Shown here: piece by piece, positions 13,865 through 16,314 of the stretch
How positions within the stretch are numbered: position 1 is the stretch's first letter
Layout of the letters: every line of letters starts with the position of its first letter
Assembly (NCBI RefSeq): GCF_017656495.1
Contig: NZ_JACDNS010000001.1
Coordinates: 1 to 64,000 of the forward strand
DNA from: Thermococcus sp.
GTDB lineage: Archaea > Methanobacteriota_B > Thermococci > Thermococcales > Thermococcaceae
Length of the DNA: 64,000 nt
Direction: 5' to 3'
Translations under genes and position numbers: made by a program
The notes under the pieces: model-generated
Database searches by the model: none
Told to the model about the DNA's origin: nothing
The model's input: the letters and a program-made list of their open reading frames with translations, nothing else

Positions 13865-13952
13865 TGGTGCGGGGGACGGGATTCGAACCCGCGCAGCCCT
13901 CCGGCAGCGGATCTTAAGTCCGCCCCCTTTGGCCAGGCTCGGGCACCCCCGC
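13865..13952 (-). tRNA. tRNA-Leu(TAA)
   Basis: A class II tRNA on the minus strand. Acceptor GCGGGGG pairs with CCCCCGC, the anticodon stem GCGGA/TCCGC flanks loop CTTAAGA, giving anticodon TAA for Leu UUA. A long variable arm (GCCGGAGGGC region) is typical of Leu. T arm and encoded CCA are intact. A TTTTTAATT box lies upstream. Confidence 0.97.
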
Positions 13953-13996
13953 TCATTCACTAAGATGAAGTATGTGAATTAAAAAGCTTTCGGTAA

Positions 13997-14052
13997 GCCT
14001 CGGAAGTGATGGCCCTCCTCACCTTTCGGTGCCGGGCCTTCTCCTCATCGGC
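13997..14052 (-). ncRNA. Candidate box C/D-like sRNA with non-canonical boxes
   Basis: A 56-base GC-rich island in A+T-rich surroundings. Read on the minus strand it has the spacing of an archaeal box C/D sRNA: C-like CCGATGA, 15-base guide, D'-like CCGA, 3-base spacer, C'-like GTGAGGA, 12-base guide, D-like CCGA, closed by GCC/GGC. The canonical sRNA at 16253-16314 has the same 15/3/12 spacing. In C'/D' the usual U-U pair would be a G-C pair. A TATA box TTTATAAA (14074-14081) lies about 26 bases upstream and CTTTTT follows. An alternative is a hairpin (GGCCC/GGGCC with a GAAA tetraloop). I am fairly sure it is an RNA gene, less sure of the class. Confidence 0.6.
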
Positions 14053-14112
14053 AATAATTAATTCCCCCAGAAATTTATAAACCTAAACTTCAACGCTCAT
14101 GTGGTGATGGTG

Positions 14113-14316
14113 ATGATAACGGTTAAGGTCATTGGAAGAAAAATCGAAAAAGAAATTGAATGGCAGAAGGGCATGAAAGTTGCAGATGTTTTGAGAGCTG
14201 TTGGATTTAACACAGAGAGTGCAATAGCAAAGGTGAATGGAAAAGTCGCTTTAGAGGATGATCCAATTAAAGACGGTGATTATGTAGAAGTCATTCCAGT
14301 GGTTTCGGGAGGATAA
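14113..14316 (+). CDS. MoaD/ThiS family ubiquitin-like sulfur carrier (SAMP-like)
   Basis: A 67-residue beta-grasp protein ending in Gly-Gly (VEVIPVVSGG), the tail that E1-like enzymes adenylate and thiocarboxylate. Such proteins carry sulfur for molybdopterin, thiamine or tRNA thiolation and can be conjugated to lysines as SAMPs in archaea. The core VADVLRAVGF and KVNGKVALEDDPIKDGDYVEV match the family. The start at 14113 is favoured by GGTGATGGTG; several in-frame GTG/ATG codons precede it. It shares a TATA region with the minus-strand sRNA. Confidence 0.88.
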   Translation: MITVKVIGRKIEKEIEWQKGMKVADVLRAVGFNTESAIAKVNGKVALEDDPIKDGDYVEVIPVVSGG

Positions 14317-16252: not shown

Positions 16253-16314
16253 GTAGGCGATGACGAATAGCAAGCATGCTGATTAGTGATGACGTGAACA
16301 CCCTCTGAGCCTAC
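16253..16314 (+). ncRNA. Box C/D sRNA (2'-O-methylation guide)
   Basis: A canonical archaeal C/D guide RNA of about 62 bases. The terminal stem GTAGGC/GCCTAC is perfect. Box C is GCGATGA (16257-16263), D' is CTGA (16279-16282), C' is GTGATGA (16286-16292) and D is CTGA (16305-16308). The D' guide is 15 bases (16264-16278) and the D guide exactly 12 (16293-16304). By the D+5 rule the D guide would methylate the U in target AGGGUGUUCACG and the D' guide a C in CAUGCUUGC. The targets, probably rRNA or tRNA, were not identified. Its 3' end overlaps the convergent GH130 stop codon. Confidence 0.9.

What the first reader, a model, noticed from the sequence alone, without database searches (positions are those of the whole stretch)
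13997..14052. C/D-like sRNA gene with altered boxes and a compensating base pair
Boxes CCGATGA, CCGA, GTGAGGA and CCGA are spaced 15/3/12 as in the canonical sRNA at 16253-16314. The usual U-U pair of the k-turn would become G-C in C'/D', a compensating change. TATA at -26 and a T-run at the end support transcription. If real, it would extend the range of box sequences used by L7Ae.
Basis: partly seen in the sequence, partly recalled or inferred. Interest (0 to 1): 0.7.

Follow-up and report, generated by a model that had tools for sequence, protein, structure and literature searches.

The report
Known archaeal rRNA-methylation guide RNA
This is an ordinary archaeal C/D box guide RNA of a family already in Rfam (sR47), predicted to direct methylation of two nearby sites in 16S rRNA; its unusual box letters are a conserved swap of one non-standard base pair for a G-C pair, and many related guide RNAs in the order share such swaps.

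Summary
The feature is real and its coordinates are right: a C/D box sRNA gene on the minus strand at 13997-14052, Rfam RF01131 (sR47), 48.1 bits against a cut-off of 40. Orthologues sit at the same place (upstream of tRNA-Leu) in five relatives of the same genus, and in about 50 Thermococcales genomes overall.

The true box C is AUGAGGA (14048-14042). This gives 12/3/12 spacing and a textbook kink-turn: stem GCC/GGC, bulge GAU, then G.A, A.G, G-C, G-C. Both kink-turns, not one, carry G-C where U.U is usual.

The inferred compensation holds up. Among 100 C/D sRNAs in five genomes, a C in the D box never faces U in the C box (0 of 27, against 57 of 73 when the D box has U). But it is common here, and L7Ae has already been shown to fold a G-C kink-turn in vitro, so the known range of boxes is not extended.

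The D guide fits 16S G501 (about E. coli 550). The D' guide weakly fits G538 (about 587). The T-run is probably the TATA box of the downstream tRNA gene, not a terminator. Transcription and methylation were not shown here.

The parts
13997..14052 (-). C/D box sRNA gene, RF01131 (sR47) type A
   Evidence: Rfam 48.1 bits, cut-off 40; 50 orthologues
14050..14052 (-). 5' half of terminal stem (GCC)
   Evidence: pairs with 13997-13999; compensatory changes in orthologues
14042..14048 (-). box C, ATGAGGA (true register); bulge is G14049-A14048-T14047
14030..14041 (-). D' guide GAAGGCCCGGCA, predicted target 16S G538 (about E. coli 587), 8 Watson-Crick pairs
   Evidence: not significant on its own
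14026..14029 (-). box D', CCGA
14016..14022 (-). box C', GTGAGGA
14004..14015 (-). D guide GGGCCATCACTT, predicted target 16S G501 (about E. coli 550)
14000..14003 (-). box D, CCGA
13997..13999 (-). 3' half of terminal stem (GGC)
14072..14081 (-). TATA box TTTATAAATT of the sRNA; near-palindromic, may also serve the divergent ThiS/SAMP2 gene
   Evidence: inference
13977..13993 (-).
   Evidence: kept near a fixed distance from the tRNA across a 9-base insertion
13865..13952 (-). tRNA-Leu (TAA), downstream neighbour
14101..14316 (+). divergent gene, ThiS/SAMP2 family

Best explanation
The gene makes a double-guide C/D box sRNA of about 56 nt. Shown by sequence: the C/D ends form a kink-turn (stem GCC/GGC, bulge GAU, G.A, A.G, G-C, G-C) and C'/D' forms the related short-loop motif (k-loop). 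Both have G-C at the pair usually U.U (3b.3n). Inferred: L7Ae binds both motifs, Nop5 and fibrillarin assemble, and the guides direct 2'-O-methylation of 16S rRNA at G501 (D guide, likely) and G538 (D' guide, plausible), about E. coli 550 and 587, 37 bases apart. The altered box letters are paired substitutions that keep the kink-turn acceptable to L7Ae; they are not a new box type.
For: Rfam hit over cut-off. Type-A orthologues in about 50 genomes. Terminal-stem pair 2 is C-G in 34 and U-A in 6 of 40 distinct sequences; pair 1 takes five standard types; 0 of 500 shuffles reach the covariation score. C'/D' 3b.3n in 50 orthologues: U.U 23, G-C 18, U.C 7, G.U 2, nothing else; C/D in 48: U.U 29, G-C 8, G.U 7, A-U 3, U.C 1. 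Across 100 C/D sRNAs of five genomes, 3b and 3n are coupled: Fisher 1e-13 for C/D, 4e-6 for C'/D'; in this genome alone 5e-4 and 4e-3. The D guide pairs with the same 16S site in all 31 genomes tested and has no better rRNA match. Fibrillarin and L7Ae genes are present. G-C at 3b.3n still folds on L7Ae in vitro (PMC4382518).
Against: No RNA or methylation data. The D' guide match is not better than shuffled guides (172 of 400 reach it); the D guide match is only moderately so (15 of 400). The genome's own rRNA is absent from the assembly, so targets were read from relatives. The two guides are complementary to each other and the naked RNA is predicted to fold as a rod (-27.3 kcal/mol, z about -4). 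Orthologues share ancestry, and on the 16S tree only 3 independent comparisons are available, too few for significance.
Confidence: 0.93

Rival explanations
1. The RNA works as a plain rod-shaped hairpin and the boxes are remnants: guide pairs with guide (GGCCC/GGGCC) and the C'/D' region is a CACC-GAAA-GGUG hairpin.
For: MFE -27.3, no shuffle folds as well. In Thermococcus s.s. the rod persists while the C' 2b A is C or U in 20 of 26 orthologues. Guide-guide pair 19-47 changes G-C to A-U in 7 sequences.
Against: Pyrococcus orthologues mostly have no rod (z about -1.4 to +1.7) yet keep standard boxes and both guide cores. The GGCC/GGGCC self-pairing follows from the two 16S targets both containing GGCC. 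3b.3n coupling across unrelated sRNAs fits kink-turns, not this rod.
Confidence: 0.05
2. A C/D-like sRNA with a genuinely new box C (CCGAUGA).
For: The letters CCGATGA are present, and in many orthologues.
Against: Orthologues break CCGATGA but keep the box three bases downstream; only the shifted register gives a 3-base bulge with the conserved uridine.
Confidence: 0.01
3. A real C/D sRNA that acts mainly as an rRNA-folding chaperone by bridging two 16S segments, with little or no methylation through the weak D' guide (a sub-case of the best explanation).
For: The two target segments are 37 nt apart; the D' guide has only 7-8 pairs and an unpaired first position in all 31 genomes.
Against: The D' guide core and box spacing are kept, as expected for a guide; nothing here tests methylation.
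Confidence: 0.2

Closest known systems
Rfam RF01131, sR47 (C/D box sRNA family)
   Same: Full-length match over the curated cut-off; same box positions, 55 model positions
   Different: The model consensus has U at the 3b position of C' and CUGA for D' and D; the window has G in C' and C in both D boxes. The model also covers a second, different guide RNA (type B)
Archaeal C/D box sRNAs with K-turn and K-loop (Pyrococcus type)
   Same: 12/3/12 architecture, terminal stem, two sheared G.A pairs, box C uridine, D+5 targeting
   Different: 3b.3n is G-C in both motifs instead of the usual U.U
U4 snRNA kink-turn (15.5K/L7Ae family)
   Same: 3b.3n is G-C or G-U, bound by the same protein family (PMC4382518)
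   Different: Spliceosomal RNA, no guide function; only the kink-turn pair is alike

Membership tests
RF01131 sR47 | score at or above the gathering cut-off | tested here: met
   48.1 bits, cut-off 40
Archaeal C/D box sRNA | boxes C and D forming two sheared G.A pairs with a terminal stem and box C uridine | tested here: met
   GCC/GGC stem, bulge GAU, G.A, A.G; stem covaries
Archaeal C/D box sRNA | internal C'/D' motif with short loop | tested here: met
   CCGA-AAG-GUGAGGA, 3-base linker
Archaeal C/D box sRNA | guides of about 10-12 nt between the boxes | tested here: met
   12 and 12 nt; 75 of 100 sRNAs in five genomes have a 12-nt first guide
Archaeal C/D box sRNA | complementarity to rRNA or tRNA at D+5 | tested here: met
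   D guide to 16S G501 in all 31 genomes, shuffled guides 15 of 400; tRNA targets not searched
Archaeal C/D box sRNA | second guide with a supported target | tested here: inconclusive
   8 pairs at 16S G538, shuffled guides 172 of 400
Archaeal C/D box sRNA | sRNP proteins in the genome | tested here: met
   fibrillarin and L7Ae-family genes; Nop5 not searched
Archaeal C/D box sRNA | expressed RNA that binds L7Ae, and target methylation | not testable with these tools
   needs RNA work

The most novel reading that the evidence does not exclude
In Thermococcus sensu stricto this guide RNA has given up its internal C'/D' kink motif: the sheared-pair A of C' is C or U in 20 of 26 orthologues, and a self-paired guide-guide rod with a GCAC/GUGC hairpin takes its place. 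The window's copy (GAAA-capped CACC/GGUG hairpin plus intact boxes) would be an intermediate. That would be an archaeal sRNA drifting to a one-motif form like eukaryotic snoRNAs.
Probability: 0.2. Interest if true: 0.45.

Novelty: new member of a known kind. Interest (0 to 1): 0.25.

Why it matters
It corrects the box reading and shows that the 3b.3n pair in Thermococcales C/D sRNAs varies in a coupled way (mostly U.U, G-C, C.C, A-U; rarely U.C). Searches with the RUGAUGA/CUGA consensus that ignore this coupling may miss or misalign genuine guides, as happened here by three bases. The Thermococcus orthologues offer a natural series for testing how much of the C'/D' motif an archaeal guide needs.

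Tried and rejected
Own-genome rRNA: no 16S or 23S match in the assembly, so targets came from relatives. Alternative D' targets (23S G1343, 16S G599, and a site near the 3' end of 16S in the spacer) score about as well as 16S G538 in one or another genome; G538 is preferred only because it is 37 nt from the D target and conserved. Terminator reading of the T-run: rejected as less likely than the tRNA promoter. Tree-based test of 3b/3n coupling: too few independent contrasts. The rod structure was counted as a rival and not accepted for the window because Pyrococcus mostly lacks it. Paper searches found no open text naming sR47 targets; Nolivos et al. 2005 on the K-loop is not held. I did not identify this sRNA in published T. 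kodakarensis or P. abyssi RNA sets.

Full report
WHAT IS THERE. On the minus strand, 14052 down to 13997, the sequence is GCC G AUGAGGA GAAGGCCCGGCA CCGA AAG GUGAGGA GGGCCAUCACUU CCGA GGC. Rfam places 13998-14052 in RF01131, sR47, a C/D box sRNA family, at 48.1 bits with a cut-off of 40. The window belongs to a Thermococcales genome; by the neighbouring aminotransferase its nearest named relatives are Thermococcus MAGs, one of them labelled T. paralvinellae.

IS IT MORE THAN CHANCE. A pattern for the four boxes gave 10 hits in 397 kb of this genome and 0, 0, 0, 1, 0 in five first-order Markov random sequences; with a terminal stem required, 8 against 0. In five whole genomes the strict pattern gave 100 matches and the reversed control none.

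In orthologues CCGATGA is broken (GCCGGTGATGA, GCCAATGATGA, GCCTGTGATGA, GCCCGTGATGA, GCCGAGGATGA) while [AG][TG]GANG[AG] three bases on is kept. Only that register gives a kink-turn with a three-base bulge (GAU) containing the uridine that L7Ae needs. The review PMC7994747 lists terminal stem, two sheared G.A pairs and box C uridine as the three requirements, and all are met. Spacing becomes 12/3/12, the commonest in the order. The terminal stem shows compensatory changes: position 2 C-G to U-A, position 1 G-C, C-G, A-U, U-A, G-U.

THE 'COMPENSATING PAIR'. With the corrected register both motifs have G-C at 3b.3n. Within the genus, five relatives show the steps: three have U.C at C'/D' (L032-L034), one G-C (L035), one G.U (L036). 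Over 50 orthologues C'/D' is U.U 23, G-C 18, U.C 7, G.U 2. The stronger test is across different sRNAs. In 100 sRNAs of five genomes, box D with C never meets U in box C (0 of 27) while box D with U meets U in 57 of 73 (Fisher 1e-13); for C'/D' p = 4e-6; in this genome alone 5e-4 and 4e-3. Some of the 100 are orthologues of each other, so the pooled p-values are too small; the single-genome values avoid that. CCGA in box D occurs in complete sRNAs of 84 of 94 genomes. So the swap is real, very likely under selection, and ordinary in this order.

L7AE. Kink-turns with 3b.3n = G-C do not fold in metal ions but do fold on L7Ae (PMC4382518). Archaeal box C/D kink-turns favour U.U, with G-C at 4b.4n, and need protein to fold (PMC5689011). 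The window's motifs therefore lie within the known range.

TARGETS. The D guide pairs over 11 positions (two of them G.U) with 16S GAGUGGUGGCC; the fifth position is G501, aligned with E. coli 550. The D' guide pairs over 8 positions with 16S GCCGGGCC; the methylated position by the D+5 rule is G538, aligned with E. coli 587. Both sites are conserved in 31 genomes, and guide changes at the D site stay pairable in most. Shuffled guides match as well in 15 of 400 cases for D and 172 of 400 for D', so the D' assignment rests on closeness to the D site and conservation.

TRANSCRIPTION. TTTATAAATT lies 29 bases before the first base, as expected for an archaeal promoter; a divergent ThiS/SAMP2-family gene starts at 14101. 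The T-run is in CCGAAAGCTTTTTAATT, which stays at nearly fixed distance from tRNA-Leu when 9 bases are inserted after the sRNA in two relatives. Expression was not tested.

THE HAIRPIN RIVAL. The guides are partly complementary, and the naked window RNA is predicted as a rod at -27.3 kcal/mol. Pyrococcus orthologues mostly lack the rod yet keep the boxes. In Thermococcus s.s. the rod is strong and C' has lost its 2b A in 20 of 26 cases. This is the most interesting loose end, but it concerns relatives more than the window.

VERDICT. A known family, correctly spotted, with box C misplaced and significance overstated. The order-wide coupling at 3b.3n is a useful by-product; I did not find it stated in the papers read, but the search was limited.

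Noticed in passing
Thermococcus s.s. (g4) orthologues L105-L107, L109, L130-L133, L135-L140, L142-L145, L147, L149: In 20 of 26 g4 orthologues the C' box has C or U in place of the conserved sheared-pair A, compatible with a GCAC/GUGC hairpin; L149 also has D' = CTAA.
   Followed up: partly
G000:C10:17367-17424 (L039) and type-B loci such as L002, L006, L012: RF01131 lumps two different guide RNAs. Type B has other guides (CUUUCGGGCC and GGCCCUCCUAU), with best matches in 23S rRNA.
   Followed up: partly
window 16256-16310 (+): sR3 (RF01133) has box C ATGACGA with 12/3/12 spacing, so 3b.3n is C.U here; relatives have CCGA, giving C.C.
   Followed up: partly
L147 and L148 (G071, G039): Two g4 orthologues lack a recognisable box C; the sequence upstream of the D' guide is CTCCCTTCGGGCTGA instead.
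   Followed up: no
window 14072-14081: Near-palindromic TATA box between the sRNA and the divergent ThiS/SAMP2-family gene; may serve both.
   Followed up: no
G000: No 16S or 23S rRNA match in the 2.05-Mb assembly although it is rated 99.95% complete.
   Followed up: no
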